NCBI GenBank assembly: GCA_963971405.1
Contig: OZ020485.1
Coordinates: 7,688,001 to 7,752,000 of the forward strand
Origin: Psococerastis gibbosa
Lineage: Eukaryota > Arthropoda > Insecta > Psocodea > Psocidae
Reading direction: 5' to 3'
Length of the DNA: 64,000 nt
Shown: piece after piece, positions 21,623 to 53,716 of the stretch
Layout: each line of letters starts with the position of its first letter
Position numbering within the stretch: position 1 is the stretch's first letter
Translations under genes and position numbers: made by a program
The notes under the pieces: generated by a model
Database searches by the model: none
The model's input: only the letters and a program-made list of their open reading frames with translations
What the model was told of the DNA's origin: nothing

Positions 21623-21762
21623 GACGCAGATTCCACCAACGTCAATAGTGATATTAAATGTTTTTTTGACGTGGTAGCAGACATTTTTAGACTGTCTAAA
21701 AATGTCTGCTACCACGTCAAAAAACATTTAATATCACTATTGACGTTGGTGGAATCTGCGCC
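21623..21762. mobile_element. 140-bp hairpin MITE, PIF/Harbinger-like
   Basis: Almost perfectly self-complementary: termini GACGCAGATTCCACCAACGT and ACGTTGGTGGAATCTGCGCC, flanked by TTA on both sides (21620-21622, 21763-21765). The centre holds GGTAGCAGACAT on the left arm and its complement on the right. Confidence 0.88.
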
Positions 21763-22019
21763 TTAGCGAAGTTCAGTTAAAACTATTTTCGTAGTGCGTC
21801 AGTGATTTCTCATACCACGTCTATTCCTAATGGAGCGGGATGTAGGTTATCTGTAAGTCAAAACTAATCTAGGTTTCTGTAAATGGGTCGAAAGTAAATA
21901 TTGTCTCACTTGTGATAGGTCTAAACAAGATTCCAATCGATATGGCGACAGTTTTATTTGTCTTTCATTGAGTAATCTCTGGCCAGGAAGCAATGCTCGT
22001 CAAAATATAATTTTTCCGT

Positions 22020-22270
22020 GGTAGCAGTTCCACACAGTCATGTTGTGTGCGCCTTCTGTTGAGAGCCCCAAATTTCTCATATCTCCGGCGATCTTTCTTC
22101 TCAGTGTAACTTTCGGCCTCCCTGGTGGTCTTCTTCCTTGCATCTCCCGGTTCATTACTTTTTTTGACTAGGTGGTTTTCGTCTCTACGTAGTACGTGTC
22201 CCCACCAGTTCAGCCTATTTTCTCTTAGTTGCTCCTGTACGTCACGGGTTCTCTTCTCATCAGGACCTTT
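22020..22270 (-). mobile_element. LINE C-terminal coding end, defective
   Basis: Minus-strand translation, with frame changes, gives RLNWWGHVLRRDENHLVK and GRRPPGRPKVTLRRKIAGDM, a pattern common at the C-terminus of non-LTR reverse-transcriptase ORFs. Related to the 13320-13445 fragment. Confidence 0.75.
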
Positions 22271-22320
22271 TTAGCATTTCTGCTGCGTGAATCATCCGTG
22301 CAATAATATAAAATTTGATT

Positions 22321-22460
22321 ATTCATACATTGGTATGAAGTGTACGCCGATGATGTCGCAGTGTTTGCGACTCTCAGGATACCGCTTTACACTTCGCTGG
22401 AGATGGAGCCACACAGGATGACCATCATAAGAATTATGGAGCATGCGATATAATACTCAG
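22321..22460 (+). mobile_element. reverse-transcriptase fragment with YADD
   Basis: The frame at 22343 reads YADDVAVFATLR, the catalytic YxDD box of a non-LTR reverse transcriptase. Little else is recognisable; it is decayed and opposite in direction to the neighbouring LINE fragment. Confidence 0.6.
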
Positions 22461-23150
22461 CAGTAGGCACAAATTCAACACGGAAGGTAGTAATTTATCA
22501 GACCCAACATGTGACCGAACATAAATATCTACAATCGACAATCAAGCATCCCATTCCATCCTAGCGGATCACTCCAAAATAAAAACACCCAAATTCAGAA
22601 AATTAAATTAATTAGGGTGTAGGGTATGAAACCATGGTACCAAACCAAGCGAAATATTTCTAATACCGATCAGAATTGTCATATAGAACATCTTATTAAG
22701 AATAATTTGACTGATAAACAAACCTTCTATTATGAAGGCTTAAAATTAATTTGTTTGAAACATTGAGGGTTAATAGTTTTAATTAACTTAGAAAAATTTG
22801 TCAGTATTTGAGGGTGCACTCGAAGAATGTTCTCTATTGTGGTTTTTCTTTTTCTTTCATTCTCAAGTTTATTGTATTCTTTATTTATTTATAGTCAATT
22901 TTTTAATGTATCACATAGTTGTAAAATTATAAGCCATTTCAAAATAACAGGGGCCCAAACACGGGTCAATCCTATGGGGTCCCCCTACCACCTATTAATG
23001 TAACATGCCCTGATATAATGCTGTAAAAATTGTTATTACAATTACAAAATATAGTATTTAAACAGATGTAAAGAACTTTACCTAACAAGTAGTTGTTTGG
23101 AATAAAATTTCAAAAAATTAAGTGATTTTGTATGGTGTTTTTAGAGATAA

Positions 23151-23529
23151 GGCGCCCATTCCACCGACCGGCTAGGGCTATTTACAAAAACGGTGACGGC
23201 AGACATTCAAGACTTAGGTGGCGTTTCCACCGACCTCACATTGCAGAATTGACGGAAATGTTTATTTTCCTCTATGCCATAGTTAAAATTGATCAATGGT
23301 CATACAGTAAAATCACAAACAAACAAACTAAAATTAAAAAATGGCGTCATGGGATATGTTAAGTACAAACATTTTAATAGATTTCTATAAAAAGAAAAAT
23401 TCTAATTTCCGTCAATGTCATTTGCATTCTGCAATGCGAGGTCGGTGGAGACGCCACCTAAGTCTTGAATGTCTGCTACCACGTCACCGTTTTTGTAAAT
23501 AGCCCTAGCCGGTCGGTGGAATGGGCGCC
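23151..23529. mobile_element. full-length PIF/Harbinger-like MITE
   Basis: Inverted termini GGCGCCCATTCCACCGACCG and CGGTCGGTGGAATGGGCGCC, TAA on both sides (23148-23150, 23530-23532), arms of about 110 bp and a unique AT-rich middle containing TTTATTTTCCTCTATGCC. The right arm holds TGTCTGCTACCACGTCACCG; the left arm has lost a few bases of the same word. Confidence 0.92.
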
Positions 23530-24439
23530 TAAACGCGGGACTGCGAGGACTAGCCTGTCCAATGTCCTGCAGGAAATAAAAGCACATGAAGGTGGTGAGA
23601 CTTTTTGTCAATATTATACAGCCCTGCGAATGAAAAGGACATATCTCTACATGGAACATGGTTACATACAGTGATCATTTAGTCAATTTAAAGAAGCTAA
23701 GCGACTACGGGAAATTTTCACGGGAACGAGGCGTTTTCACTACGGGACGAGAACGAGCGAGAAAGTACGGGACTTGGCACTGAAATGGAGTTCATTCCTG
23801 TCCCTATAATAATTTATTAAAGTCAGATTTAGAAATTAAGATGCTAAATTCATCATGCACTACTTCAAACGCACCCTTACGGAGGATTCTAATGTACTCC
23901 CTGTAACGTTATTTTCACGCTATGTACACAATTGCCGATATTCTTTACTATAAAAAAATTTCCGATTCGACAAACTGCCCCACACACACCTTAAAGGTGC
24001 CAAACAACTTATATGGAGAACAAGCCGTGTAATACGGTGAGCTATAGGCTATAGCGATGTCTATGGGGTCTGTAGCCTGACGATGGCCTAGTTCTGAAAC
24101 CAGTCACTTAAATATCTTTTAGCAATCCTTGACAAAGTTATTTTATTTACTAGCCATAGCCGGTTTTTATTTAATTTTGCACTATATTTACCAAATTTGT
24201 TTTGCATGTTTTTTGCTCAAAACTTTTTTTTTTAATTGTTGACGATATTAAATGTGTTTTATAGCAAGCTTTGGTCATTATTTTTTCAATTTTTAAATAA
24301 ATAGACCAGCTTCATTGAAGATTATAGTGACCGGTACGTACGTGTCGAGGAGAAATTGATTCAGGCCGATTCAACGAATTATAGTGAACATTATAGGGAA
24401 ATGAGGTCTCTCCGTATGGTGAACTGTATGGAGTAACCG

Positions 24440-24590
24440 AAATTAGAGAATATATATATAAAAAAAAAAAACTGGGCTTGGCGGGATTGGAACCCGCGAT
24501 CTACACTTATACTGGGAGTCGTCTTAACTGCTGGACCACAAGGACTAGTAGTCTAATTTCGGTTATACGAGGAGGTTACCTTTAAATGTC
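24440..24590 (-). repeat. tRNA-like SINE, family C, copy 1
   Basis: On the minus strand, GGTCCAGCAGTTAAGACGAC (A-box-like) is followed by GCGGGTTCCAATCCCGCC (B-box in a hairpin). The flanks read CTAATTTCGGTTA, seen at every copy (48950-49115, 55590-55792, fragment 30225-30285). No acceptor stem closes, so it is not a real tRNA gene. Confidence 0.75.
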
Positions 24591-24683
24591 AGTATATCAT
24601 ATAATATTCCAATGCATTGTATGGATTACTTTATCGGACGCATTGTAGAAACCCTCTCCAAGTCTCCATGCCTTCGTCCTATA

Positions 24684-25067
24684 GGTGCCCATTCCATTGA
24701 CCGGCTAGGGCTATTTCCAACAACGGTGACGTGGTAGCAGACATTCAAGACTTAGGTGGCGTTTCCACCGACCTCGCATTGCAGAATTGACGGAAATGTT
24801 TATTTTCCTCTATGCCATACTTAAAATTGATCAATGGTCATACAGTAAAATCACAAACAAATAAACTAATATTAAAAAATGGCGTCATGGGATATGTTAA
24901 GTACAAACATTTTAATAGATTTCTATAAAAAGAAAAATGCTAATTTCCGTCAATGTCATTTGCATTCTGCAATGCGAGATCGATGGAAACGCTACCTAAG
25001 TCTTGAATGTCTGCTACCACGTCACCGTTGTTGGAAATAGCCCTAGCCGATCAATGGAATGGGCGCC
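24684..25067. mobile_element. full-length PIF/Harbinger-like MITE, second copy
   Basis: Same family as 23151-23529 over its whole length. Termini GGTGCCCATTCCATTGACCG and GGAATGGGCGCC are flanked by ATA on both sides. Both arms keep the intact GTGGTAGCAGACATTC word. Confidence 0.92.
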
Positions 25068-25477
25068 ATAGGCCCTAATCATTATTTGCCAAACGGAGAG
25101 AAGCATCTAAAATATTTCAGAAGCCATATTATACAACTAGTGACTGTATTTATCCATTATTACGTCATTTGAATAGGCTAGCACTATCATAGTAAATGGA
25201 ACAATGAATCACAGCTGCTACAACCCTGGTGATTGTGATTAAAATCGTGCTAGATAAACGAGCAACCAAAAAAATGACAATCGAATCTTTATCGATACCT
25301 TTATAATCTGGCCCCATGGTAGGACTCCTAGGGCCCCCTATAATTCTTGAATCACCTTAGTTAGCCAAGTTAGGCCAAATTCACAATGGAATTAGAATAA
25401 AATAATGCACTGCCACTCTTGGATATCGGAAAACGGAACGAAGACAAGCTAGAATGCACTGTATATTGTAAGCCCAT

Positions 25478-25840
25478 ACCTCAATTACACTTCCAACCAC
25501 CCTCAAGCCACCGAAATAGGTATTGCCTAAACGATTTGCTCAACGGATCCAGAATCCGAATCAACCATTAGGAAAGTACATACAGTTACCAAGGCAAAAC
25601 ATCTAAAGAATGAACTGGAACTGTGTCTAAGAAATACTCAATGAATGCGATCGAAAATACATAGGGGAAGCATGTTGGTCACAGAAAGAGCTCAGCAACA
25701 CAAACGATGCGTGAGACTAGGAGAAACAGAGAAATCCCATGCAGACTATGGACTGAAAATAAAATGGGACGAAGCAAGCGTCATTCTTAGGGAGAAAGGT
25801 TTCAGAGAAAGCTATAAGAAGCAACAGCGATGGCCCTAAA
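25478..25840 (+). mobile_element. Penelope-like element fragment, GIY-YIG end
   Basis: The frame at 25646 reads CDRKYIGEA, matching the C-x-R-x-YIGET core of the GIY-YIG endonuclease of Penelope-like elements. A shift to the frame at 25645 gives HKRCVRLGETEKSHADYG then WDEASVILREKGFRESYKK, the conserved EHRRAxRLG...HAxxxGHxIxW...IL...KExL end. The upstream part (NHPQATEIGI region) is poorly kept. Frameshifts make it inactive. Confidence 0.75.
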
Positions 25841-26199
25841 TACTGATCCTATAAGCCAGCCCAGCATGAAATTAGACACGACATGCTTGCTATTAGTTAG
25901 GAAAACACTTAAGTCGAAGTAGAAGAATCCTTAGGTCGAATCCTCAAGGGGATCGGATTTACTCAATAATTCAGAGTAGAATACAAGACAGACAATCGTC
26001 CAGAAACCATCAGTTCTTCTCACTACTAAGCCTGACGATGGGAGTAGCACCCACTTCCAAAACGTCACCCCTTCCCCTGATAATGGGCTCCGACCCAATT
26101 GTTCGATGACTGTCAGGTCCCTGCCTCTAATCACAACACAGCAGGTAATGTTAGTCCAACTAATTCTTTGTTGGGCAACATTCAATGACGGCTAACACA

Positions 26200-26482
26200 G
26201 GCAGGTACCGAGTGGGGTTCGGTCAAAGACCCCCCGCCTAACTCCGTGGAGTTAGGGCATGGGCACCCTCTTGTCCATGGGAAACGAAAAGCTCCTTAAA
26301 GGCGGACGAACTGGATCCTGGCAACAGGTGACGGTCAACGGCATAGGATGCGGAAGGCAAGAGGAAACCACCGCATTATAGGCCCAAGTGGCATCCCAAG
26401 AACCAGCAACCATGTACAATTCGAGGCATCGAAGTCACATGTTGCTGCTGACCAGCCATCCGGCTGTGACTTGAAGAAGAAG
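26200..26482 (+). repeat. SINE-like family D, diverged copy
   Basis: Shares CAACGGCATAGGATGCGGAA with copies at 17755 and 42794 and ends TTGAAGAAGAAGAA. The first part (CCGCCTAACTCCGTGGAGTT) is not seen in the other two. Confidence 0.6.
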
Positions 26483-26810
26483 AATTCTTTGTTAAATAAA
26501 GTATTAGTTTGTAGTATGATATTGTTAAAAAAAAAACTGTAGAACATACAGTGTTAGGCTGTTGTATAATCAATCTAATTGAATTTAGCCTGTAAAATGA
26601 TGGCGTGCTCCTTAAAATCTCTTCTCTAGAAAACACCAAAGTATCATAACAGGACATATCACAGGACTTCTACCTAATTATCTTAGCATGAAATTTCACT
26701 ACCACGAACACCGGGACCAGTAACAATACTTCTGACGCGCCAACAAAGCAAACTATGCATTCGCACGCAGTCATTTCAAAGCAATTATAATATTAATAAT
26801 AGCGATTTCG

Positions 26811-26999
26811 GTGGCAAGATGGTAGCGTGCTTATACTTGTCCGAGTCTCTACCCACCTTGCGGTCGGAGACGTGTCGTAGCGCGACACAAGTACATATTA
26901 GGTTACTAAGTGAGGCGATTGAAGAGGTTAATCGGATGCATTCATTATATTGTTTGTACGCGGTTAACCTTTTTTTAAAGAAAAAACAAGGAAAAAACT
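26811..26999 (+). repeat. SINE family A, copy
   Basis: Runs from GGCAAGATGGTAGCGTGCTT through GAGACGTGTCGTAGCGCGAC and GAATGCATTC-type sequence to an A-rich tail. Three other copies in the window (11441-11572, 32788-32957, 44764-44935) share head and tail. Confidence 0.8.
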
Positions 27000-27060
27000 T
27001 AAAGTATGAAAATTATTTTTCCAGTGAAAACCCTACGGTAAAATGGAAGCAATACGGAGA

Positions 27061-28010: not shown

Positions 28011-28020
28011 AAATGTTTTT

Positions 28021-30175: not shown

Positions 30176-30224
30176 AGTACTAATATATTGCAGTATTATA
30201 TAGACTGACACTGACTTCAAACTA

Positions 30225-30289: not shown

Positions 30290-31102
30290 AAAAAGTACTA
30301 AGGTACTATCATTAACAGGTTCTAAAAACTTATGAGCTGCAAAATCGGCCAAAAGAACAATAGTATCAGAACTGAAGAGTGACAACTGATTGACTTTTTC
30401 AATGTTAATAAGTTGTTTATGACACAAACAGAAACGATGGAAAATTAAAGGAAGAAAACCGTTCTTAATTGAATATTAGAAAAACCAACAAAACAACATC
30501 ACAGATAAGAGCTGTTCTTCAAATTCGGTTTACAATACTCTTTGGTAGAATGACAATTTATTATTCATACATTTCTATGCCCAAACAATATAGACTTCAA
30601 CGATAAACATTGATACTGGCAATGAGCCAACTATAGCCAGGCATTTCTGTGCAAAAACAGTGGGCCTAGGTGTTATTTCGTATTCGTATTTTCAATCAAA
30701 TGTCAATATTAATATAAACAAATAATGACCAGGAATTAGGATTTGGAAAGAATGAGAATTACTAGGAGGAATACTAATTGTAGGGAGTCTGGCAATTTGG
30801 TAGCCTCTCTTTTCCGATTGTAATTATCAATGATCGGTGGTCACCAGCAATACTACCTCGGATTTCTCAACGGTTCAACCAATTTTTTGGGTGCAATAAG
30901 CTACCACACTCTTTACTTAATGTGCCTCACATCCCTCCCACACTCGCGGCCTCGTAGGCAAAAGCTATGGGATTCAAAAGGAACCACCATGCATTTGAAT
31001 AGGGAAAATACGGCGGCTTCCATCGGGTAACAATTCTTGTAGCTTTAACAACAACTAGAAAAACCAAAATCGGAAACCCTACAAGTTCATTTGCTCAGCA
31101 AG
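30290..31102. other. no gene seen
   Basis: No coding or repeat structure recognised. Confidence 0.5.
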
Positions 31103-31270
31103 GATATTTAGAGTAGTGGTACGAACTCGGACTTTCACTCGAAACGTTGATGGTTCGCGTCCCACACTAGCTACATTTTTGGGCCATGCCATGTCCCGGA
31201 CATTCCTAGCCGAGTGGAAGAGAGGGCTTTACAGCTCTAACTACGCTAGGTAGGTTTAGTAATAATGCAA
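31103..31270 (+). repeat. tRNA-derived SINE, family B, copy 4
   Basis: AGAGTAGTGGTACGAACTCG head, CTTTCAC loop, GGTTCGCGTCC B-box and a CTAACTACGCTAGGTAGGTT end. About 20 bp shorter than the other copies by an internal deletion. Confidence 0.83.
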
Positions 31271-33360: not shown

Positions 33361-34551
33361 TTACAGCTTGAGAGTAAGTTTTGAGGTAAGTTCCTCAGCA
33401 GTTCCGCCCCACCGCAGTCTAAACATACGCGACCGCCACCGCAGCACAGGGTACCACAAAGACCGAAAAGTCATCGCTGGCCATGTCACCTCACTGAGAA
33501 CCCAGCCGATTAGAAACTCCACTTTGTTGAAAGGAAGAGACCCATGCTGAACAATCGTCAGCAGAAGCCAGTCCGATAGAAACCAAGCCAATAGATGCAG
33601 CAGAAGAAATATCGTAGGATCCCAGTCAAATAGGATGTGGGAAGCCCAACTTGCATACAATCCGCTGATTATGCTGCCAGTAAAGGGCTCTACGGAAAAC
33701 GTTAATGGAACCATAGCTAACCTAAGTTTCGCCCAACGGGCAAGGCGTTCTTGAAAGTACACAATACGGCAATGTCCAGAATTTTGGAGAGCAGGATGTG
33801 TTGACAGAGAAAGTTTCCAACCGCGGTCCCGCACAGCCTCAGCTATGAAGAAATCTTCTGCAATATATAATCCAAACGCACGCAATCCACCTGCCTCCTC
33901 TAATACTGATTTACGAATTAAAGTTGACATTCCCGTGTGGCAATTAATGCCTAACAGATCAGCTCCAAGTGCCATTCTGGCATGAAACGTTCCAAAGTAT
34001 ATTTTTTCTAGTGTTGCCGGGAAGCCCTCTCTATCACATGTAAATGGCATTTGGTGAACTATGGCAACATATTCTGTCATTTTTGACACCATGTCCAACA
34101 GCGCGTCGTCACGTATTTTAATACCACAATCTGAGATCATTACAAGTTCATATTTAGCCGCAGCATAGCCGGGGTGCATGTTGTTAATTTTGGGATTTAC
34201 ACCGACCACTTCACCTCCAATAAATAGACTAGCATCCACTTGAGCGTATTTTTCCATAAGACACCGCACAACCGGCAAAGCGGCATCTTTGTCATCTTCT
34301 ACACAGAACAGAAGTTCGTAGAGAGGGTAGCTTTGTATGAAAAAACTTTCGAGATTCTGCATTAAATTCGGGTCTTCCCCAGAGAGAGGTTTTAGAATCG
34401 ATACGCCAGGAAGGACACTTTCGGGTGAAATTTTGGTAACTTTTCTGTGAAGTTTCCATTTTGCATGAAATATGGCAATTATTTGGATAAGCCAGAGAAC
34501 GCACCAAGATACGGCAAAAAACACGGCCAGGCCCAAAAGAAGTGGAATCAT
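33361..34551 (-). CDS. UGCG: ceramide glucosyltransferase, intronless
   Basis: A complete 396-residue protein moves glucose from UDP-glucose to ceramide, the first step of glucosphingolipid synthesis, on the cytosolic face of the Golgi (GT21 family). It aligns end to end with animal UGCG (human 394). Residues about 3-28 form the N-terminal membrane anchor. Catalytic motifs are intact: D86 in CVEDDKD (D1), D141 in ISDCGI (D2), D233 in YIAEDFF (D3), and RLARW at 269-273, the (Q/R)xxRW box. His190 is the family histidine, and GGTAEE at 382-387 is the conserved C-terminal signature. Hydrophobic stretches at about 290-335 and 345-360 are membrane-associated. ATG at 34549-34551 gives the family start. 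No intron interrupts it, whereas vertebrate UGCG is split. No stop or frameshift, so it appears functional. Confidence 0.96.
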   Translation of the reverse strand: MIPLLLGLAVFFAVSWCVLWLIQIIAIFHAKWKLHRKVTKISPESVLPGVSILKPLSGEDPNLMQNLESFFIQSYPLYELLFCVEDDKDAALPVVRCLMEKYAQVDASLFIGGEVVGVNPKINNMHPGYAAAKYELVMISDCGIKIRDDALLDMVSKMTEYVAIVHQMPFTCDREGFPATLEKIYFGTFHARMALGADLLGINCHTGMSTLIRKSVLEEAGGLRAFGLYIAEDFFIAEAVRDRGWKLSLSTHPALQNSGHCRIVYFQERLARWAKLRLAMVPLTFSVEPFTGSIISGLYASWASHILFDWDPTIFLLLHLLAWFLSDWLLLTIVQHGSLPFNKVEFLIGWVLSEVTWPAMTFRSLWYPVLRWRSRMFRLRWGGTAEELTSKLTLKL

Positions 34552-37582: not shown

Positions 37583-37713
37583 GGCGGGGTTTCCACATAC
37601 GTCAATATAAATAAGTAAATGTGGTATTGACGTATTAGCAGACATTAAAGACATACTAAAAATGTCTGCTACCATATTTAGCATTGACCATTGACGTATG
37701 TGGAAACCCCGCC
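37583..37713. mobile_element. 131-bp hairpin MITE, PIF/Harbinger-like
   Basis: Termini GGCGGGGTTTCCACATACGT and ACGTATGTGGAAACCCCGCC are flanked by TTA on both sides (37580-37582, 37714-37716). TTAGCAGACATT and AATGTCTGCTACCA lie around the centre. Confidence 0.9.
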
Positions 37714-40599: not shown

Positions 40600-41435
40600 A
40601 TTTCGTGCAATTGAACTTTTTTTATCATTACGAGCTAGGGGAAATCTTCGTATACATAATTATTTAAATTTATTGACATTCTTTGAATAGTAAATTACTT
40701 ATCTTTGTATCATTGCTTTTTATTTGCCATTTAAATGCCTGGTTAATTAACGGGTAGATGACAGAATCTGGATTACATGTAGGGTTTAAGGTGGAGATTT
40801 CAAAATATTTTGTAAACAAATAACGAACTTGCCCTTTTTACGAAATTAATTATTTCCTCGATATGCAGCTGCGAAAATATAACAATATTGTCAAATGAAA
40901 AATTCAAAAAGAATGCAAGCTTTAGCATATCAATAACCGTTTTCTGGAAATGGCTTAATTATAACAGTGGGCGTGGACATGGAAAATGAAGACAATTTTC
41001 TTTCTTTCTATATTGCAGCTACAGTAGTAGTAATTCAGTTTGTCTGCGTATTTAGAAAGATTATTTTATATATTAATGTTTCATCTGACGACTTTGACAT
41101 TTTTGCTGCTGTAGAACGAGGAATTACTTCATTTCAACAAATTTGCTTTCAAAATAGTTTGAAATCTTTGCCTTAAGGTTTCTTTTGAATTAAGTATTAA
41201 AAATTTTGCATGGGCGTTGCCTTCACATTGCCTGATGGTCTAGTTGACGGGGTATCGGGCTCGGGACTATGGTAATATAGTACAATGTCTTAATAATGAC
41301 AATGATTTTCCGCTGACATTTATAAATGGCCGTAGACATCTTGGGTAGCGAAAACTGAAAAGTAATTAGTAACTAAAGGAAGTAAATGATTAACTGCAAA
41401 ATAAATGTACTGTAAAAATTATTTATGAACCTGAT
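40600..41435. other. TAF12 downstream region, nothing recognised
   Basis: AT-rich; no clear poly(A) signal near the TAF12 stop and no other feature. Confidence 0.45.
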
Positions 41436-42273: not shown

Positions 42274-42615
42274 GGCGGCAATTCCACCGGCGAATGTACT
42301 TCATTTGTGATTTGAGATTTTTTGTTTTAAGGAGACTATTATGTAGATACTTAACTTATCTATTATAAATTAAGTTATAATATGGTAGCAGACATCATTA
42401 ATAAGTCTCTACCATATTATAACTTCTATTCTAACTTCTATTCTATTCCATCTATCAATAATCCGTCATTTGTGCATCAAAAATTGAAGAGATGTTTATT
42501 TTAAGGATACTATTATGTAGATACTTAACTTATCTATTATAAATTATGTTGTAATATGGTAGATACTTGTTATTGATGCACAAATGACGGATTATTGACA
42601 GATGGAATAGCCGCC
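42274..42615. mobile_element. PIF/Harbinger-like MITE, composite
   Basis: Termini GGCGGCAATTCCACCGGCG and GGAATAGCCGCC, flanked by TAA on the left and TTA on the right. The interior holds AAGGAGACTATTATGTAGAT twice in the same direction (about 42331 and 42503) and GGTAGCAGACATCATTAATA. The left half matches 49217-49483; the right half looks rearranged. Confidence 0.82.
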
Positions 42616-43139: not shown

Positions 43140-44118
43140 ATTTGACTCCGGGCACGAAAGCCTCTGTAATTTTGATGTTCATAAACAATCCATAAGTTGC
43201 CTTCAGTCAGTCACTTACCAGGTTCTTTGCGGTTTGGCAAAGCCTCAAATCGAACCGTCATTGTTAATAATTTACAACAATGTAGCAGAAGTGGTTTCCA
43301 GATAAGACATCCTATAAATGCCGCGATCATTATCGTTACGCATCATAATATTGTCAATTTCCTAGCGTACCATACAATAGGTAAGGTAAGAATGCATTAT
43401 TGTTATTATTTTTAATAAACCAACGCGACCGCTTATTCATAGTCTATTTCAAATTACAATTAAGTAGAAAGCAATGGCACTGAATGAAAATTTTACTTTC
43501 GAACAAAGAAGATAGAAAAAAATTAAATTTAAGAATATAAAATATTCTTTTGACAAGCACATGATCTTGTAATATTTTGCGCAGACCATTACCCAAAAGT
43601 ATATTAAAAATGGTTCACAGTAATGTGAAATCCTGTATTAGAGAAAGAGAAACGTGAAAAATGGGCGGAACGGGATTCGAATTCCGTTTCCGTTAATTCT
43701 TCCATTATTAATAACCTTTGGCGAATTTTGGGTTTTTTAAAAAAAAAGCTGACCATTAATCTAATTTGTACTTATGTAGCTATTATAGATTAGTAATGTG
43801 AGATCGAGACTACAGCGACACAACATATTTAAAGCCATTATGTAATAATAATTGAATAGGCTTCGAACAGAACTTTATTTATGTAGACCAGGGTAAGCCT
43901 AAGTTAGTCGCAGCATTATTTAAGTATAACACAAATTTTATAATGACACTCCTCTGTCATAAAAATAATATGATTTTGATTTTGCTCTGCATTTTGGTTA
44001 AGTTAAATAAAGTGGTACCGCAGGCTAGATAAGTTCCACTACTTTTGCCAAAATTAATTTTAAACCATATTCCACCATTACGTTTTCATATACTGTACAT
44101 AGTTTATTTTTCAGGAAA
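43140..44118. other. upstream region of the aminopeptidase gene
   Basis: AT-rich. No TATA box or initiator can be assigned with confidence. The acceptor-like TTTATTTTTCAG immediately before the start codon at 44119 suggests a 5' UTR intron. Confidence 0.45.
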
Positions 44119-44410
44119 ATGGCAAAGCAGCACATTTTTGTGCTTCTTTTATCGGTGATCCTTCGGCTTGGTTTGTGCCAAGATGATGCCGTAAGGTATC
44201 TCCTACCTGGAAACTTGCAACCGCTATACTACAACCTGACTCTCTATCCGCACATCGAGCGGTTCAGACCTCTGCAGCCTGCAAGTTTCCAATACGAGGG
44301 CGCGATTGACATTACTTTGGAGACCGTCAATGAAGATGTTTCTGAAGTGGTTATCAACAGACATAGCGAGATTAAGCTCGTGGATGTATCTGTTGAAGGT
44401 TCTGGTTCAG
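44119..44410 (+). CDS. M1 aminopeptidase, exon 1
   Basis: Start codon and 97 residues. A signal peptide (about residues 1-21, MAKQHIFVLLLSVILRLGLCQ-type hydrophobic core) replaces the internal anchor of vertebrate aminopeptidase N, so the enzyme enters the secretory pathway as a secreted or GPI-linked type. YLLPGNLQPLYYNLTLYPHI follows, the standard opening of the N-terminal beta domain (domain I) of M1 peptidases. The exon ends in phase 1 at a GTACTG donor. M1 enzymes remove N-terminal amino acids from peptides using one zinc ion. Confidence 0.94.
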
Positions 44411-44459
44411 GTACTGTCCTATTTTGTATTGCATAAGGCTTACCACTTACTAAACTTAA

Positions 44460-44745
44460 AGCCGGCCGCCATACCAAGTTGAATCCAGCGAACCAGAGCA
44501 GGTTCAAAGCTGCAGATAACTTGGTCGTGTGCACAGTGCCGGTAGGGAAACATGGTAGGACTTGTCCTGGTCACCTCCGAACTAATCGTGTGACTTCACT
44601 GTGTTTCCCAAGTGGTTCGGAATCCACTATAATCAGGAGGTCCACTGTCCTATGGGCTGGGGCATAGGACAGTCAAGTCGGGGTCGCTCTATGGGCCCAA
44701 ATATGAGGCCTAAGTCGTTATTAACCCGACGAACACTACTACTAC
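44460..44745 (+). repeat. repeat family F copy in aminopeptidase intron 1
   Basis: CACCTCCGAACTAATCGTGT and GGTTCGGAATCCACTATAAT match the complement of 16010-16090. A small (CTA)n run ends it near 44742. Confidence 0.75.
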
Positions 44746-44763
44746 TACTAAACTTAAAGGACT

Positions 44764-44935
44764 TCGATGGCATAATGGTAGCTTGTTCGTACTTGTACGA
44801 GTCTCTACACATCATGCGATCGGTGACCTGTCGTAACTCAACACAGGTATTACCTACTGAGGCGAGTGAAGAGGCTATTCGGATACATTCATTGAATTGT
44901 TTGTATGCGAATAATCTTTAAAAAAAAATTAATAA
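44764..44935 (+). repeat. SINE family A copy in aminopeptidase intron 1
   Basis: Head GATGGCATAATGGTAGCTTG, middle CATGCGATCGGTGACCTGTC, end GGATACATTCATTGAATTG and an A-rich tail. Confidence 0.82.
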
Positions 44936-45650
44936 TAATAATAAAATAAAATACTAGCCTAGTCGGATATTATTATTTATGATCCAAATTACATGGAAGC
45001 GGCTTGAAATAATATGTCGGAACAGTTGAAATTGTTTCTCCGAGATTCATTAGCAATGGCGCTCGTTAAAGTAGCATATGGACTACAATTATTTAACGGA
45101 TGGCTTATTTAAGTCCCCACCAGGCGGGTTAGATGGGTACCCGCAGCTCAGTCAATCAGCGATTCGGCAGTTGTGACTGAGATGTTGCGGGAGGCATAAG
45201 CTAAACATGGTGAAAATTAAACCAGTAAGATCGCCATGGACCCAGAACTTCTACGCCTGCGATTCTGCTGTCAGCCATGCCTGCGGACCTACTAAGGCCA
45301 TTATTTTTAATCTTACCCTGGGAATAAAAATGCAAACAAAGTAATTGTGGCACTTTCTATTGTAAAATTATCTTGTGTACATTTTTAATTCCAGGTTAAG
45401 ATAAAAAATAATCGCCAAAATTGTTCATTTGTTTTTCATTTCCTAATATATATATTTTTTTTTTATCTTGAACCCGAGGAACTCGGTCAGCTTTCCTTTG
45501 TGGTTGCCACCTTTCCCCCTGCGTTTCACCGCTATTGGCCTTACTTACCTTATGGTTAGCCGCCATCTAATCTATTTTATTGGTATCCTTGGTCTACCCC
45601 TATTCTGGAAAAATTAAAAAAAAATCTGAATTCCAAAAATGTTATTTCAG

Positions 45651-45834
45651 ATAATGTAGAGAGAACCGTGACGATTGGCAGTTTTGACTCCAGAGCTAAT
45701 AAGCAAGTTTTAAACGTAAATCCACCTTTAACCAAGGGCAATCAATACGTACTCTCCATTAACTACACTGGGGTTAATAATAACGACCTGACTGGTTTCT
45801 ACAGAAGCAGCTATAATTCAGGGGGCCAAACAAG
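45651..45834 (+). CDS. M1 aminopeptidase, exon 2
   Basis: Acceptor TTATTTCAG, donor GTAATT. It enters in phase 1 (completing an Asp) and leaves in phase 2. It encodes the middle of domain I, ending GNQYVLSINYTGVNNNDLTG and FYRSSYNSGG, equivalent to the LxGFYRSxY motif that precedes the substrate-facing strands in M1 enzymes. No stop or frameshift. Confidence 0.94.
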
Positions 45835-45959
45835 GTAATTACATAATAGTTTAAAAAATCCTGTAGTTACATTGGTATTTGGTTAGTTCTTTTCTTAGAC
45901 TCCTATATCTATGACTTGTTCCTGTGCTTAGCTAAGTCAAGCTAACCCCTGTTACAAGG

Positions 45960-46130
45960 TTCAGTGGTAAGCATATCTCAGCTTGTGCATTGTCACTTGT
46001 AGTCAGCGTGGGATGACATTGAGGACTTGACCCAGTTTGCAAACGACCAAAAATGCACTCGGAAACACTACTAATAATGCGAAAAATAGCTCACGTTGTT
46101 GCATCCATGCCGACATCGATCCTTTCGTAG
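45960..46130 (+). repeat. interspersed repeat shared with 13133-13300
   Basis: GGTAAGCATATCTCAGCTTG and GTAGTCAGCGTGGGATGACA match the copy in the TPK1 intron; it lies in aminopeptidase intron 2. Confidence 0.65.
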
Positions 46131-46176
46131 CTGATCTGCCGAAATTTTTAGCCTAAAGATTATTGGTGTATTTCAG

Positions 46177-46347
46177 GTGGTTGGTTGTGACAGACCTGGA
46201 ACCCACTGGTGCCCGTCGCGCTTTCCCTTGCCTCGACGAGCCCGCCTATAAAGCTATCTGGGAGGCCGCTGTGGTTTACAACCAAACGTTGTATGATGAC
46301 GGATACGTAGCCCATTTTAACACAGAGATTAGTTCTGAAGAAGTGAG
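46177..46347 (+). CDS. M1 aminopeptidase, exon 3
   Basis: Acceptor GTATTTCAG, donor GTGAGG, phase 2 on both sides. It encodes [20 protein letters not shown] then [13 protein letters not shown], the family hallmark TQ-x-EPTDARRAFPCFDEP-x-KA. The change of Asp to Gly in EPTGARR is visible; otherwise the segment is conserved. It belongs to domain I, which packs against the active site. Confidence 0.95.
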
Positions 46348-46602
46348 GTGAGGAAAATTAGGCAGTGGTTTTGTTTACTTTAACCATTATTTATTTATCT
46401 TATATTGATTTTTAAAGTACTTACTTAATGGTAAGTAACTAAATTTGCGACCTGGAAAGTTATTACATACAGCTCTGTACGGGTTTAACCGGATCTGTGT
46501 AAACTTCCTGGAAAGCAGCTGCTGCTGGCAAAAGATGGGAAATAACAAATGACCTACGGGTCAAACGCCATCCCCAGTAGACGTCGCGGTCGCCACATCT
46601 AA

Positions 46603-46776
46603 GATGGTTACAACTACCACCAGAGCCGCCTGCACAGAATAGGCTTCGTAGAGTTTCCCATCTGTCCCTCTAACGAGGCTGAAGGCATGGCCGACTGCCC
46701 GTTCAACTACATGGCTCTGGACAAGATGACGAAGATGGAGACTCCTTGCAGCAAAACTCTACACAGCTTCTATTGA
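46603..46776 (+). pseudogene. unassigned open stretch in aminopeptidase intron 3
   Basis: Fifty-seven codons with codon-like base usage read DGYNYHQSRLHRIGFVEF, then ICPSNEAEGMADCPFNYMAL, and end at a TGA. The region is GC-richer than the rest of the intron. There is no start codon and no clear acceptor, a stop directly precedes it, and it is not needed to join exons 3 and 4, whose phases already fit. Likely a captured or decayed exon or transcript fragment; I do not recognise the family. Confidence 0.35.
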
Positions 46777-46866
46777 CAGAAATTCAACGTTAACGAGCGT
46801 TAGATGAGTAACTAAGCAATAAGACAATTTTGCATTCTCCTACAGTGTCTACTAATTATTTTTCAG

Positions 46867-47202
46867 AAATGGACTTCATATCACTCGTTTCGAGCCTACA
46901 GCCCTGCCCATCTCCTCGTACCTCGTCTGCGTCATTTTAGCTGATTTCCTCAGCAGTCCGCAGCCAACCTACTTTACTAGCAGCTACAACGGGGAGAATG
47001 CGACCAAACCATTTTGGACTATTGGCCAAAGCAAGTTCTACTCCCCTCGTCAGGATCTAACCAGCCAAGTGGCCGGACCAGCTGCTTTGAACTTCGTTTC
47101 ACAGAAGACCGGCGTTGGCTTTGGCCTATTGAAAGTAGAGCAGGCGGGTATTCCAGATTTTTCTGCTGGAGCCATGGAAAATTGGGGTCTTGTTACTTAC
47201 AG
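46867..47202 (+). CDS. M1 aminopeptidase, exon 4, GAMEN exon
   Basis: Acceptor TTTTTCAG, donor GTTCGT, phase 2 on both sides. It spans the end of domain I (EPTALPISSYLVCVILADF) and the start of the catalytic domain. The exopeptidase motif GAMEN is intact at residues 317-321 of the spliced protein, preceded by KVEQAGIPDFSA and followed by WGLVTYR. GAMEN binds the substrate's free N-terminus, which marks this as a true aminopeptidase. Confidence 0.96.
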
Positions 47203-47311
47203 GTTCGTAATTAGCTACTAGACCTTTTCTCTTTCTCTTATACCCTCTTTAGTTTTTAAGATATTTATAGAGATTACTATAAAAAAAGTATTTTTTTTTT
47301 TAATTTTACAG

Positions 47312-47495
47312 GGAAAGTCTAGTTTTCTGGAACGAACAAACTGGTAGTACAAACGCTCAAGAAGGCGTAGTCACAGTGACAGCCCATGAACTTGGTCATC
47401 AGTGGTTTGGTGACTTAGTAACCTTGCACTGGTGGAAAGATCTTTGGCTCAATGAAGGCTTTGCTACATTCTTTGAGTTCCATACGTCAGATCAG
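47312..47495 (+). CDS. M1 aminopeptidase, exon 5, zinc-site exon
   Basis: Acceptor TTTTACAG, donor GTAATT; entry phase 2, exit phase 0. It carries the complete gluzincin site: HELGH at residues 353-357, then 18 residues and Glu376 in [12 protein letters not shown], supplying both zinc histidines, the catalytic glutamate and the third ligand. The reading frame stops being followed after residue 389. Family members run about 900-1000 residues, so over half the protein (the rest of domain II, and domains III-IV) is not in view. The next exon lies beyond 64 kb or is lost. Confidence 0.96.
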
Positions 47496-47666
47496 GTAAT
47501 TTTTCCTTTGTCATTCTTCTATTTGTTCACTGTGTACTGACTGCTGACTGCTGACTGACTGCTGACTGACTGCTCAACGTTGCCTTACACTTTTTAAGGC
47601 AATTCCAGTAACCTGTCAGACTTGTCACACTTGCTGGTCTGTTGGGATTTGGTAATACGTGAGTTG

Positions 47667-48518: not shown

Positions 48519-48594
48519 ATTGAGATGTTGGAAAAGCCGTAATGTAGTGAATAACGATCTGGACTTTCGTAAAGAAACTCCATTCCTATGTCTA

Positions 48595-48780
48595 ATTATA
48601 AATAATTACACATGTGAGAGGCTGAAGCCACGTTGTTCGGAACCCACAATAATCAGGAGGTCCCCTCATTCATATCATAGCAAGTTCAAACACGAAGGCT
48701 TGGCGTTATGTAAGCTCCTAAGTCGAACCCATGCTCAAGCTAAAATCGTGCGATTGACAGAGATTGTGTTATGTATGAAT
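48595..48780 (+). repeat. repeat family F, partial copy
   Basis: GTTCGGAACCCACAATAATC and AGGAGGTCCCCTC match 44620-44650; the rest is diverged. Confidence 0.6.
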
Positions 48781-48949
48781 TGAGAGCCCCTTGACACCCT
48801 AAGGGGGGTACTAACAAGTTAGATAACGATGAAGAAGGCTATTCCACATACTTTAGGGCTGTTTTATCCTGTTACTATTCATAGCTATGGGGGAAGACTG
48901 CAGTATCGGTTTACACATTGTATTGTAGTATTATATGGAGTATATAACT

Positions 48950-49115
48950 CTGACATTAAATCAACTTTGGTTGAGGAGGTAACCTCCAGGTTATAACCGA
49001 AATTAGAGGATATAGAAAAACTGAACTTGGCGGGATTCGAACTCACGATCTACGCCTAACCGGGGCGTCGTCTTAATCGCTCGACCACAAGCCCGCACAA
49101 GAACAGTTGATGTAG
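48950..49115 (-). repeat. tRNA-like SINE, family C, copy 2
   Basis: On the minus strand GGTCGAGCGATTAAGACGAC and GTGAGTTCGAATCCCGCC form the A- and B-box region. AACTTTGGTTGAGGAGGTAA and CCGAAATTAGAGG lie on the other side, as in the other copies. Confidence 0.78.
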
Positions 49116-49216
49116 GCACATTACCATAGGAAAATCTGTATTTGGCGGGAGCTGCCCGAAATGTTTCTAGAATATGTTGTAGAATCCACCTTTATTCTCA
49201 TGCTTAGTCTAAGTAA

Positions 49217-49483
49217 GGCGGCAATCCCACCGGCGAATTTACTTCATTTGTGATTGGAGATTTTTGTTTGTTTTGTTTTAAGGAGACTATTATGTAGATA
49301 CTTAACTTATCTATTATAAATTAAGTTATAATATGGTAGCAGACATCATTAATAAGTCTCTACCATATTATAGCTTAATTTATTATAGATAAGTTAAGTA
49401 TCTACATAATAGTCTCCTTACAACAAAACAAACGTCAACGACAAAATCAAATTTGAAGTAAAATCGCAGGTGGAATACCCGCC
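49217..49483. mobile_element. 267-bp hairpin MITE, PIF/Harbinger-like
   Basis: Termini GGCGGCAATCCCACCGG and GGTGGAATACCCGCC, TAA on both sides (49214-49216, 49484-49486). The arms pair through AAGGAGACTATTATGTAGAT and its complement. GGTAGCAGACATCATTAATA sits at the centre. Confidence 0.9.
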
Positions 49484-49489
49484 TAAGCG

Positions 49490-51032
49490 GTAGGTTTTAT
49501 TTTTAAGTGCAAATTAACGTCAACATGTTCAGACACATACAGATGGTTCTGAGTGACGTCGTAGGGGTGTCCAAAGTACAAATGGGGACATTGACGAACT
49601 GATGAGGTTATAAGGGTTTTATTGTTACTTTTATCATAGTTTATTATTCCAATTCGTAGAGAGGGGGGGGGGGTTATGTATATACATAGTCACTTCTTCG
49701 TGCCTTAGGCATTAAACTGAATTAAACAGAATTACATAGTCACCCCGAATGTTAGCATAAAGTTTGTGGGTTTATTTTTAATTGGTCCGGAATACAGGGA
49801 CGGGCGACTGCCCCCCCCCCACCCCCCATTTTACAAAAGAAGGGTTGAGGGTTCTCTCCCTGTTATCTCCACTGTGTTCAGTATTATGGAAAAAGCTTCG
49901 TCCGTTAAATCTGAAATTTTATTGCGGTCACTATTCGCACCCCCCCCTCCCTTGCTTTCCACGGGAGAGACCACGGACCCCATGTTCGTATGTATATAAA
50001 ATTTGAAGAGCAGGTAGGGGGGGGGGGGGGTGTTTTCAATCTTAGCACATGCAGGGGTCCCAAATTCATAGTTTCGCTAACTGGTCTTAGGTCAATTTTT
50101 CATATGGAACGGGTAGGGGCCGCACGGGCGTACGCAGGAATCGGAGCGGGGGGTAAGGGAAAGTGCGGATCTAGCGACTATTAAATATGATACTTTAAAG
50201 TTTGCCGGGCCTGCTGGCACCAGATCAATTTAAGGATAATTATGGTTGGTTCGAATATATCATATTCTCTCCTATGTTGAACTCCAGCCTATACGTTTAC
50301 GCCTACCGCTGTAATAGTAATTGTAGACCTGTGATCGCAATGCAACGTTTCCAATTGATTGTTGCCCCTACTGTACCATGCTTCGGTACGCATATTAATT
50401 CATGAAATACTGTAGTTGGATATCAATCTCAAATATAAAAAATGTGAAAGAGCGGGAGACTGGGCAAGGCCGTTGCCGTATATACGAAGCCGGTTGCATA
50501 CCTAATGAAATTGTAGATAATCAAGCAGATCTGCAGTTCGATAATTATGCAACCTCTTTCCGTTGTAATGATGACTCACTCGAAATCCTACGCTTAAGCC
50601 AACAATACTTTCATGTGGAATACTCCCCCCCCCCCCCTTCCCCCCGATAATATGTTATCTCCTTCCGGGGTTTCTGTTAAAATGTCCAACCGTTTTGAAC
50701 CACTACTGCGCTTATATTTACTTTAAATCTTAAAGAATATGTATCTGGTACGGTACCACATACTATACCAATTAATGATAGCCCGCCCTGGTATACTTTA
50801 CATACAGTACCATGATATTGTAGTAGAATTGCACTTGTTTGTACATTATAGAAAATGCAATTATATCATCGAAGAATCCGTTAGATAGAGGAAATTATTA
50901 GATCTAAAATTTTACCCCAGAACAGGCGTAGGGAGTTGGGTACGGTACTGGACTAGCCGAAAGTCGCGACATTGAGACGCCAGCGCACGGACAGTCGTAC
51001 TGTAAAATCGCCCATTTTTTTATTTATTATTA
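49490..51032. other. no gene seen; many G and C runs
   Basis: C and G runs at about 49660, 49811, 49940, 50020 and 50627 mark further G/C-run repeat debris. Open frames here (49766-50650) are low-complexity artefacts. Confidence 0.55.
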
Positions 51033-51854
51033 TTGCTTTCCAATTTATACGTAGTATAAGGAAAGCTTTGTGACGGTCGAAATTTTCGATTCCGAGATTT
51101 CAACAGATTTACACGTTTTGAGGTCCCAGGAACCCAAAAAAGTGGTTTTTACGAAATGTCTGTCTGTCTGTCTGTCGCTCTGTCTGTCTGTCTGTTCATC
51201 GATTTCCGGGCAAACTACTCAGTCGATTTAATTGAAATTTGGCATGTAGGTTTATAAAAATCATACCTCGAGACCAATTTTTTTATTTTGGGCTAACTCA
51301 ATTTGGGGGGTTTTATTCTCAAAAAACTTCAAAAAAAAGTCTAAAAAAATTATTTCTCAAAAACGGCTCCAACGATTTCTTTTAAATTCACATATATTGT
51401 AGCCATTATTAATGTTAATAAAATGCGGGGTGTTGCTTGCCCCTTGATAGTTTGATTCTGGGGGTAAAAAAATAAAAATAACTAAATTTTAATGAAAAAT
51501 GACTAAACAATCATTTTTCCTTTCTATCTATGATTTCTAACTTCAAGCATGTTTTAGGTGTTAAATTGAGTAATGAAACCTGATAGTTTGGTTTTCCAAG
51601 AAACTATTGGGTTTTGAGCAAAAAATTTTTTTTTTTGAAAAAATGAAAGCAAATTCACGCTCAAATGCATTGGGTGTCCTGCCATTATTGCTGTGGTAAT
51701 TTGTTGGTGTGACCCATCTAGAATTTTCATCACCTTCAGTGACGTTAGGTAGACCACCCCCCCCCCCCCATTTATCATGAAATTAATCATTTTCTCTCTC
51801 TACTAATCGATGAATTGGAAAGCATGTTTGATTAAACTCGAACCGGTTCTTTTT
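51033..51854 (+). repeat. dispersed repeat, family E, copy 2
   Basis: Second copy of 47667-48518, with a longer TCTG run (about 51157-51195) and a C run near 51757. The two copies are direct repeats about 3.4 kb apart. Confidence 0.88.
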
Positions 51855-51859
51855 TTGTT

Positions 51860-53551
51860 GGAATTCATCAAACTGAACAAATCTATCAGAAACTAACATT
51901 CAATCTCCAATTATGGCTGAATCTTTATCGGTGGGACAGAAAAAGACATTTGGAGGGTGCAGTCAAAAAGGAGAATTTTAGAGTTTTCAAGCGGGCTCAC
52001 AACATTGGACAGGGAAAATAAACTTAAGGAGCCGGTTTGTAGCATGCAAATGTTATGACCCTTAAATTGTAATCAAGAAAGTTTTTTATGTATAGGCCTA
52101 ATTAATACTTTTCGAGCTACAGCCAGAAAACCACAGGGCTCCAGATGTAATTTTTTTTACTTATTTTGCTTTGTTGACAATTTTCCGCCTCGAAATTTTG
52201 GTGGGAAACTACAGAACCGGAATCAGAACCCCGGAAACATAAAGAACGAAAATAAAAATATCCGTCAACCTAACTTTCCAAGGAATGTACAAATTAACTG
52301 GACAATATTGTATTTAAAAATTCAATATAATGCCCCTTGTCCGAGGTTCACCGGACAAGGAAAAAAACGAAAAAGTGAAGTGAAGTGATTGACGTATTTG
52401 CATACTACCGTAGGCTATCTCACATATGCCCTATGTATTATTCAATAGTATTTCATTGTTGCAACTGCCTAATTGCCAACACAGACTGTTTTACATAGGC
52501 AGTCAAGAATGTCAATATCAGCATTTATAAAATATGCTCAGAATACCTGGTTTTAGTGCTAAATCGAAAATTAGGATAAAAGCAGGTTAATATACATTAC
52601 ATGCACTGTATATAACCTATATAGCCTAGAGTATATAGACAGTTAAAAAAAAAAAAACGAGATCTGGCCATTATTATTATTTTTTTTTTTCTTAATCACC
52701 AACGGAGCTCTCCAATGGTCGCTGCTGAAGATAGCAACGGTCATAGGGGTTAAAAAATTGTACCGTAACCAATTATAACGAGTAGAAATGGCCATATTAC
52801 TGTATTATACGTACGATATGTGTCAAAATGGCGGGGAATATTTCTTCTATTCTTAATAGGATCCAACCTATCATTTTAAAATTAAAACTTCATGAGATTT
52901 GACTTCTGCAAAAAAAGGGGGAATTGGGTTTACTTTCCCTTTATCCTCGAATAAACACTTACCTAAAACAGTATAGGCTATTGTATATTGTTCGCAGCCT
53001 TAGGCACGAAAAATATACAACATACAATAACAAAAATCACAAAGTTAATAAACAATATGCAAATTATTACAAAATACAACAAACAATCAAAAAGTTAACA
53101 AAACAATATGAAAATTAGAGCCCATTGCATATGCTGCTGTACTCACGAATCGAAAACTGGAAATAAATATTATGAGTTTGTTGGTTTATGGAACTGTACA
53201 GATCTAGGGGGAAATTTAATAATTGTACAATACGTTTAAATCAGGAGTCACTTTTTCGCATTTCCTATCCGCATAGGAAAGAAAAAAAACTCATTTCAAG
53301 ACTAAACAATCAATATTGCCTTATGTACGGCCATAGTATTAAATACAAGTATACAGTATAACCCAATGTGCGATATACTGTAGAGTATATTGTAAAGAGC
53401 CGTACTGCAACCAGGAATTTAACATATTCATATTTAACATTTAACATATTTATCATAATATTTACATCCAGTTTTAACCTTACAGTGCAGGCTGACTTAT
53501 AGTCTAAATCATACAATATTATCCAGGGCACTTTATAGACGGGTATTCTCG
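51860..53551. other. no gene seen
   Basis: AT-rich. The segment 52325-52395 (CCTTGTCCGAGGTTCACCGG...GAAGTGAAGTGA) is the inverse of 20225-20275. Confidence 0.5.
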
Positions 53552-53554
53552 TTA

Positions 53555-53716
53555 GGCGGGTATTCCATATACGTCAATCCTCAATGAAAAATTGAAAAAT
53601 GACGTCAAAATGACGTAAATTGACGTGGTAGCAGAATTTTTAGTATGTCTATAATGTCTGCTAAAACGTCATTTTTCAATTTTTCATTGACGATTGACGT
53701 ATATGGAATACCCGCC
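53555..53716. mobile_element. 162-bp hairpin MITE, PIF/Harbinger-like
   Basis: Termini GGCGGGTATTCCATATACGT and ACGTATATGGAATACCCGCC, TTA on both sides (53552-53554, 53717-53719). GTGGTAGCAGA and AATGTCTGCTA lie at the centre. It adjoins the 3' end of the exon at 53776. Confidence 0.92.

What the first reader, a model, noticed from the sequence alone, without database searches (positions are those of the whole stretch)
21623..53716. A set of unlike hairpin MITEs sharing one internal word, GGTAGCAGACAT
Eight elements (8985-9258, 21623-21762, 23151-23529, 24684-25067, 37583-37713, 42274-42615, 49217-49483, 53555-53716) have GGCG-type termini followed by an ATTCCAC-like block, mostly TTA or TAA on both sides, and TAGCAGACAT or its complement inside. 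Their arms and lengths (131 to 384 bp) are otherwise different. Conservation of one sub-terminal or central word across diverged elements suggests a transposase-binding site or a processing signal of the hairpin transcript, not mere common descent. TWA duplications fit the PIF/Harbinger superfamily.
Basis: partly seen in the sequence, partly recalled or inferred. Interest (0 to 1): 0.75.

Follow-up and report, generated by a model that had tools for sequence, protein, structure and literature searches.

The report
Harbinger MITEs sharing one palindromic core
These are very abundant, ordinary-sized 'cut-and-paste' DNA parasites of the Harbinger kind; different families carry different arms around the same palindromic centre, and related ends that lack this centre have multiplied too, which suggests an inherited chassis with changing ends rather than a site needed for jumping.

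Summary
The word is real and huge in number: 31,832 exact copies in the 409 Mb genome against 20 for the reversed word. It lies in MITEs with GGCG..TTCCA ends and 3-bp duplications, mostly TTA or TAA (41 of 75 outer pairs have identical 3-bp flanks). Between arm families the word is far more conserved than the arms (0.93 against 0.45, shuffled 0.43, mostly word-anchored loci), and 22,686 matches place it 46-52 bases inside an exact end motif. The word is, however, the best-kept part of a ~56-bp palindromic core. Harbinger is supported: a MADF+DDE_Tnp_4 locus on contig C2 carries, on its MADF side, the 51-bp arm of one MITE family, and the filling of E0, E2 and E3 is a deletion derivative of such an element. 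That end lacks the word, and 1,086 exact ends with the same inner arm cannot have it at its usual place. An obligatory transposase site is therefore unlikely. Best reading: a shared core combined with different Harbinger TIRs, both arms of a copy tending to change together. The DDE-side end could not be read, so an accessory binding site stays open.

The parts
8985..9258 (.). E0: truncated copy of the composite B family; only the right end is present; word (reverse) at 9198-9209; ATG of MADF remnant at 9070
21623..21762 (.). E1: 140-bp palindromic MITE, TTA/TTA; words at 21673-21684 and 21702-21713; folds as one hairpin (-110 kcal/mol, z -24.5)
23151..23529 (.). E2: composite B-family MITE, TAA/TAA; left word lost by a short deletion, right word 23469-23480
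23217..23458 (+). inner element of E2 without the word: Harbinger deletion derivative (TIR, leader, first codons of a MADF protein from ATG 23341)
24684..25067 (.). E3: composite B-family MITE, ATA/ATA; words 24733-24744 and 25007-25018
24755..24996 (+). inner element of E3 without the word: Harbinger deletion derivative, ATG of MADF remnant at 24879
37583..37713 (.). E4: 131-bp MITE, TTA/TTA; word variant at 37634-37645 (2 mismatches) and exact word (reverse) at 37662-37673
42274..42615 (.). E5: 342-bp C-family MITE, TAA/TTA; word 42384-42395
49217..49483 (.). E6: 267-bp C-family MITE, TAA/TAA; word 49335-49346
53555..53716 (.). E7: 162-bp MITE, TTA/TTA; word variants at 53627-53638 and 53654-53665 (2 mismatches each)

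Best explanation
The elements are Tourist-like MITEs of the PIF/Harbinger superfamily. Most are built as [about 50-bp family-specific arm, the TIR] - [shared ~56-bp palindromic core, by eye ATTGACGTGGTAGCAGACATTAAAGAC(n)TAANATGTCTGCTACCACGTCAAT] - [TIR reversed]. Shown: in the two cases that can be compared the core begins within a few bases of the place where the Harbinger-type ends leave the arm, which by itself would explain the constant ~50-bp distance; the one MADF-side Harbinger end read lacks the core; about a thousand exact ends with the same inner arm lack the word at its usual place; variants in the two arms of one copy tend to go together. Inferred: the Harbinger transposase with its MADF partner acts on the TIR; the core descends from one ancestral MITE and has been kept while the TIRs diverged or were exchanged between families; new or changed arms are made symmetrical by copying one arm onto the other across the palindrome (snap-back or gap repair in a fold-back). 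The word is the best-kept stretch of that inherited core, not an obligatory transposase site.
For: 31,832 words against 20 for the reversed word; 22,686 matches with 46-52 bases between an exact end motif's start and the word, reversed control 0; one large family makes up much of these counts. 110 of 124 arms have 48-52 bases before the word. Between 13 arm representatives: TTCCA 0.97, word 0.93, spacer 0.45 (shuffled 0.43). 24 cores printed, many with the same asymmetric apex across unlike arms. 3-bp duplications: 41 of 75 outer pairs, 33 of them TTA or TAA. C2 locus: DDE_Tnp_4 at 18157237-18157734, MADF at 18159149-18159346, end read in L093 with the arm of the L041 MITE family and no word between arm and MADF start. 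The inner element of E3 runs collinear with that end from TIR through leader to the MADF ATG (score 173 beyond the TIR, maximum of 200 shuffles 50). Ends with the 31-base arm and no T after it: 555+531 exact; where letters are shown, six inverted pairs 349-356 bases apart all continue GGA on one side and GGG on the other, so the repeat stops there. Concerted arms: 27 B copies, summed left-right mismatches 78, permuted mean 117, 0 of 5000 permutations as low; minor variants at positions 14, 15, 34 and 38 in both arms of 7, 8, 10 and 4 copies (2.4, 3.7, 4.5 and 1.1 expected). Second set, 6 copies: 23 against 76 (55 of 5000). Mosaic copy L091 1037-1198: outer-arm sequence of the L041 family on an E7 centre, TTA/TTA.
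Against: Only one end of one autonomous-type locus was read, and its outer flank shows no TTA or TAA; its DDE-side end was out of reach. The ends exclude the word only at its usual place; their inside was not read except 84 bases next to one GGA end in L031. Positions 3 and 42 of the B arms vary in one arm only (18 and 12 copies, never both; 3.0 and 1.3 expected in both), so arm correction is incomplete or sporadic; and likeness of arms within a copy follows in part from subfamilies alone. The arm-copying step is inferred from patterns. One of ten MADF flanks carried the matching end. In the B inner elements both ends share TTGACGGAAAT, so the inner edge of that TIR is uncertain by some bases (by eye in the sequences). 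Harbinger accessory proteins are reported to use subterminal sites (PMC9710019, passages), which fits the rival; the same paper calls PIF TIRs short, about 15 bp, whereas another gives 25-50 bp (PMC9179366, passages).
Confidence: 0.5

Rival explanations
1. The word (with the preceding TTGACG) is an accessory subterminal binding site for the MADF/Myb-like partner or the transposase, at the inner edge of the TIR, so that MITEs carrying it transpose better; elements without it move less well or have lost it.
For: Fixed distance of about 50 bp; conservation above the spacer; outer ACGTCAAT and inner ATTGACGT blocks are inverted copies of one another in several arms (by eye); the Myb-like protein of Harbinger3_DR is reported to recognise a 9-bp subterminal motif (PMC9710019, passages).
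Against: The MADF-side end of the C2 locus and the B inner elements lack it; 1,086 exact ends of one arm type lack it at the usual place; in C-family arms it lies 110-122 bp from the end.
Confidence: 0.27
2. Simple common descent: the core is the centre of one ancestral MITE, the spacers have decayed or been replaced, and the core is kept alike by gene conversion among tens of thousands of copies, with no function at all.
For: The apex between the two words is shared by several arm families although it is not part of the word; a mosaic between families was seen; very high copy number.
Against: Spacers are at the shuffled level (0.45 against 0.43) while the word is at 0.93, a steep contrast for one molecule evolving at one rate; but rests mostly on word-anchored loci.
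Confidence: 0.13
3. The word is a signal in RNA, for processing of a long hairpin transcript into small RNAs, or a host transcription-factor site (TGACGTGG resembles the ATF6/XBP1 site, recalled).
For: E1 folds into a near-perfect hairpin (z -24.5).
Against: Any palindrome folds so; no transcript or small-RNA data here; the word's distance from the centre varies between elements while its distance from the end mostly does not.
Confidence: 0.07

Closest known systems
Tourist-like MITEs / PIF-Harbinger superfamily (mPing-Ping, Harbinger3_DR)
   Same: 3-bp TTA/TAA duplications, GG..CC termini, a matching locus with a DDE_Tnp_4 transposase and a second MADF gene; a repeat of about 50 bp fits the 25-50 bp given in PMC9179366 (passages)
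   Different: Near whole-length palindromes; several arm families sharing one core; over 10,000 copies; another paper gives about 15 bp for PIF TIRs (PMC9710019, passages). In mPing and mPong no transposition-promoting internal sequence is shared (PMC9921582, passages)
P-element MITEs of Anopheles gambiae (PMC1562414, passages)
   Same: Ends from an autonomous element joined to a central region unrelated to it; repair with ectopic sequence proposed
   Different: P superfamily with 8-bp duplications; here one centre serves several arm types
Galileo, with long TIRs resembling Foldback elements (PMC3688188, listing and start of abstract)
   Same: Long inverted arms
   Different: P-element superfamily; no link to Harbinger seen in what was read

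Membership tests
PIF/Harbinger MITE | 3-bp target duplication, TWA preferred | tested here: met
   41 of 75 outer pairs with identical 3-bp flanks; 19 TTA, 14 TAA, 2 TCA, 2 TTT, 2 ATA, 1 TAT, 1 CAA
PIF/Harbinger MITE | terminal inverted repeats shared with an autonomous element of the superfamily | tested here: inconclusive
   MADF-side end of the C2 locus equals the L041 MITE arm over 51 bp except at positions 3-4; the other end could not be read and the copy may be damaged
PIF/Harbinger MITE | matching element encodes a DDE_Tnp_4 transposase and a Myb/MADF partner | tested here: met
   PF13359 at C2:18157237-18157734 (98.4 bits) and PF10545 at C2:18159149-18159346 (32.1 bits), 1.4 kb apart and convergent; that both lie in one element is inferred
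PIF/Harbinger MITE | mobilisation by that transposase | not testable with these tools
   needs an excision or transposition assay
MITE | short, non-coding, high copy | tested here: met
   131-390 bp for outer pairs with the word; 31,832 words genome-wide; the B family keeps only the first codons of a MADF gene
Bipartite transposon end (word as second transposase site) | motif present in the ends of the autonomous element | tested here: not met
   absent from the MADF-side end of the one locus read; DDE side could not be read

The most novel reading that the evidence does not exclude
The core is a pivot that lets a MITE lineage change its ends: once one arm has been overwritten by the TIR of another Harbinger family, the palindromic core templates the other arm, so that one non-autonomous chassis has parasitised a succession of transposases. 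The core would then be kept for its fold-back property rather than for protein binding.
Probability: 0.25. Interest if true: 0.65.

Novelty: new variant of a known kind. Interest (0 to 1): 0.42.

Why it matters
How non-autonomous elements outlive the transposases that move them is an open question. A chassis with a constant centre and exchangeable, self-symmetrising ends would be a concrete answer, and this genome, with over thirty thousand exact words in several arm families, at least one mosaic, and a candidate source element, makes it testable largely by sequence analysis.

Tried and rejected
Rejected: chance. A single recent family with uniform identity (one search gives 14 spacer clusters, some of them variants of one another). 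The highest-scoring DDE_Tnp_4 groups as source: in 5.6 kb around each of three (L081-L083) no such end was seen other than MITEs with their own TAA duplications in L082 and L083; ends beyond those 5.6 kb are not excluded, and L081 was not scanned against Pfam. A second Harbinger (L084) has other ends. The PF13873 Myb search gave 9 matches, none near a listed DDE_Tnp_4 place by eye. Two patterns found nothing in viral contigs. A literature search for the 10-mer returned 69 papers; none of the 20 listed is about transposons by title. A first try at inter-family apex identity was uninformative (3 families, 0.65 against 0.58 shuffled). Bias to know: L001-L008 and L021-L080 were fetched because they hold the exact word, so favours the word, and a few of its 13 representatives are variants of one another. 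In the 12 random 10-kb loci 9 of 10 outer pairs carry the word with at most 2 mismatches; in the transposase-anchored loci L081-L095 3 of 3. Window plus random loci: 16 of 18 outer pairs (without it: L020 4275-4415 and a doubtful pair at window 40790-41172), besides 6 nested inner pairs, none with the word. In one search, 127 pairs were found in L001-L080 and the window; 22 shifted or low-complexity pairs were dropped to give 105, of which 75 are outer and 67 of these carry the word. In one search one of 14 clusters was dropped as a truncated variant. In one search only B copies longer than 250 bp with both arms within 14 mismatches of a reference arm were kept (27). Not answered: the word-bearing count for the same 31-base arm, the control distance N{3,32}, and the word next to the MADF leader (and later busy calls). 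On checking, I lowered the best explanation from 0.55 to 0.50 and raised the accessory-site rival from 0.25 to 0.27, because one search excludes the word only at its usual place.
Full report
What is there. The window is G000:C2:7688001-7752000 of an unnamed 409,210,807-bp genome in 68 contigs. Nine exact GGTAGCAGACAT occur in the window, 0.18 expected with one mismatch allowed. Genome-wide the word occurs 15,809 + 16,023 times, the reversed word 11 + 9 times.

Anatomy. Seven of the eight listed intervals have both GGCG..TTCCA-type ends; 8985-9258 has only its right end. In L001-L080 and the window 127 end pairs were found; after dropping 22 shifted or low-complexity pairs, 75 are outer pairs, 67 of them with the word, and 41 have identical 3-bp flanks, TTA 19 and TAA 14. 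The word starts after 48-52 bases in 110 of 124 arms; the exceptions are six arms of the 42274/49217 family (110-122) and eight others between 38 and 72. Genome-wide 22,686 matches have an exact GGYGnnnnTTCCA start 46-52 bases before the word, against 31,832 words in all. One large family, B, makes up much of this: 67 of the 124 arms are in its cluster.

Word against arms. Among 13 arm representatives pairwise identity is 0.97 for TTCCA, 0.93 for the word, 0.69 for the first eight bases, 0.63 for the seven before the word, 0.64 for the twelve after it (shuffled 0.54) and 0.45 for the spacer, where shuffled spacers give 0.43. Most of these loci were fetched by the exact word, which favours it. 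In 12 random 10-kb loci 9 of 10 outer pairs carry it with at most two mismatches. The 24 printed cores show that about 56 bp are shared in the short elements, in many with an asymmetric apex such as TAAAGACTTATTAATG or TAAAGACATACTAAAA; L039 and L065 have a longer filling and E1 a nearly symmetric apex.

Source element. DDE_Tnp_4 has 150 matches among the 150 candidates scored, of 220. High-scoring ones include another group: L083 holds HTH_Tnp_4, and YqaJ and THAP frames nearby, which I take as ISL2EU-like from memory. MADF gives 113 matches (150 of 210 candidates scored). By eye about 19 places have a MADF and a DDE_Tnp_4 match within about 5 kb; I fetched 1.2 kb outside the MADF side of ten of them. 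One of ten, L093, carries our end: on the minus strand it reads MASWDITSTTILINFF.., and beyond that start lie a leader and then the 51-bp arm of the L041 MITE family up to the terminus. Between arm and leader there is no word: the MITE reads TTGAAGGTGGTAGCAGACATT, the C2 locus TTGAAGGACATTTCAATTTTAC. A word that does occur in L093, at 993, belongs to a separate B-type copy about 700 bases outside that end. The flank of the end shows no TTA or TAA, so this copy may be damaged at its edge.

The composite family. In 23151 and 24684 the inner part is collinear with that Harbinger end: its own TIR, leader and MADF start (MASWDMLSTNILIDFYKKKN..); for 24684 the score beyond the TIR is 173, the maximum of 200 shuffles 50. 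It is a deletion derivative without the word, lodged in the core of an outer MITE; 8985-9258 keeps part of it. Its flanks (TTA left, TAA right in 23217 and 24755) are not a direct duplication; the halves of the core continue the palindrome, CAAGACTTA and TAAGTCTTG.

Ends without the word. The 31-base inner arm of the L041/C2 type followed by a base other than T occurs 555 + 531 times. Of the first 100 places listed, 21 show letters (13 A, 8 G); the six inverted pairs among these that lie 349-356 bases apart each continue GGA on one side and GGG on the other. The word-bearing MITEs of this arm have their two arms much closer (143 bp in all in L041 and L082), so these pairs are another family and not mutated words. 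The pattern rules out the word at its usual place; deeper inside was read only for 84 bases in L031, without a word. Ends without the word have thus spread widely, and the word is unlikely to be obligatory. The matching count for word-bearing arms did not complete.

Arms change together. In 27 B copies the left and right arms of one copy are more alike than arms dealt at random (78 against 117 mismatches, 0 of 5000 permutations as low); subfamilies alone would give some of this. What speaks for concerted change is that variants at positions 14, 15, 34 and 38 occur in both arms together; against it, those at 3 and 42 occur in one arm only, 18 and 12 copies, never both. Six copies of another arm set show the same trend, though they span subfamilies with different spacers (23 against 76, 55 of 5000). 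L091 1037-1198 joins L041-type outer arms to an E7-type centre with TTA on both sides; its right terminal 14 bases stay E7-type. These fit copying of one arm onto the other and exchange between families; they do not show the mechanism.

Judgement. Membership in the PIF/Harbinger superfamily is well supported for the class of element and rests on one locus for the source. The constant distance of the word is explained if the core starts where the TIR stops, as the two comparable cases suggest. Why the core is kept is open. I put most weight on an inherited core with changing TIRs, with a fold-back pivot as its boldest form, and about a quarter on an accessory binding site, since a 9-bp subterminal site is reported for the Myb-like protein of Harbinger3_DR (PMC9710019, passages). 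Papers seen: PMC9921582, PMC9179366, PMC9710019 and PMC1562414 in passages; PMC3688188 as listing and start of abstract. Seven literature searches did not list, by title or start of abstract, a MITE set with one core and several TIRs; that is no proof of absence.

Noticed in passing
window 20401-20875: Near-perfect hairpin, two 233-nt arms 99% complementary with 9 nt between; holds no copy of the word with up to 2 mismatches; family not identified.
   Followed up: no
window 411-566, 17399-17557, 18499-18587, 31101-31189: Repeated sequence with a tRNA-like part (GTTCGCGTCCCAC), probably a SINE (label by eye); ARAGORN calls an unassigned tRNA at 17482-17567.
   Followed up: no
window 55111-55528 and 57822-58217: Related inverted repeats with AATGGCCCCATGCG, another hairpin family.
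   Followed up: no
window 49022-49094 (-): tRNA-Thr (GGT) by ARAGORN, also matched by the Rfam tRNA model.
   Followed up: no
window 33361-34551 (-): Intact 396-aa frame matching Glyco_transf_21, ceramide glucosyltransferase type, in one exon.
   Followed up: partly
window 44029-47537 (+): Exon-like frames with [12 protein letters not shown] and GAMENWG, M1 aminopeptidase by eye (motif recalled, not scanned).
   Followed up: no
L083 1-5601: DDE_Tnp_4 frame with HTH_Tnp_4, plus YqaJ and THAP frames nearby; many places in the genome have equal score and frame length, which suggests recent activity.
   Followed up: partly
L084 485-3946: A different MADF+DDE_Tnp_4 Harbinger with 52-nt exact terminal repeats AAGCTGGGTACAGACTTG...
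   Followed up: partly
L020 4275-4415: Palindromic 141-bp element with the same kind of ends but no word (best 4 mismatches), flanks TAT/TAA.
   Followed up: partly
G000:C3:25540534-25842171 and C14:20360856-20848722: Clusters of five and six similar-scoring DDE_Tnp_4 matches on one strand, about 58-104 kb and 54-201 kb apart, perhaps inside long repeats.
   Followed up: no
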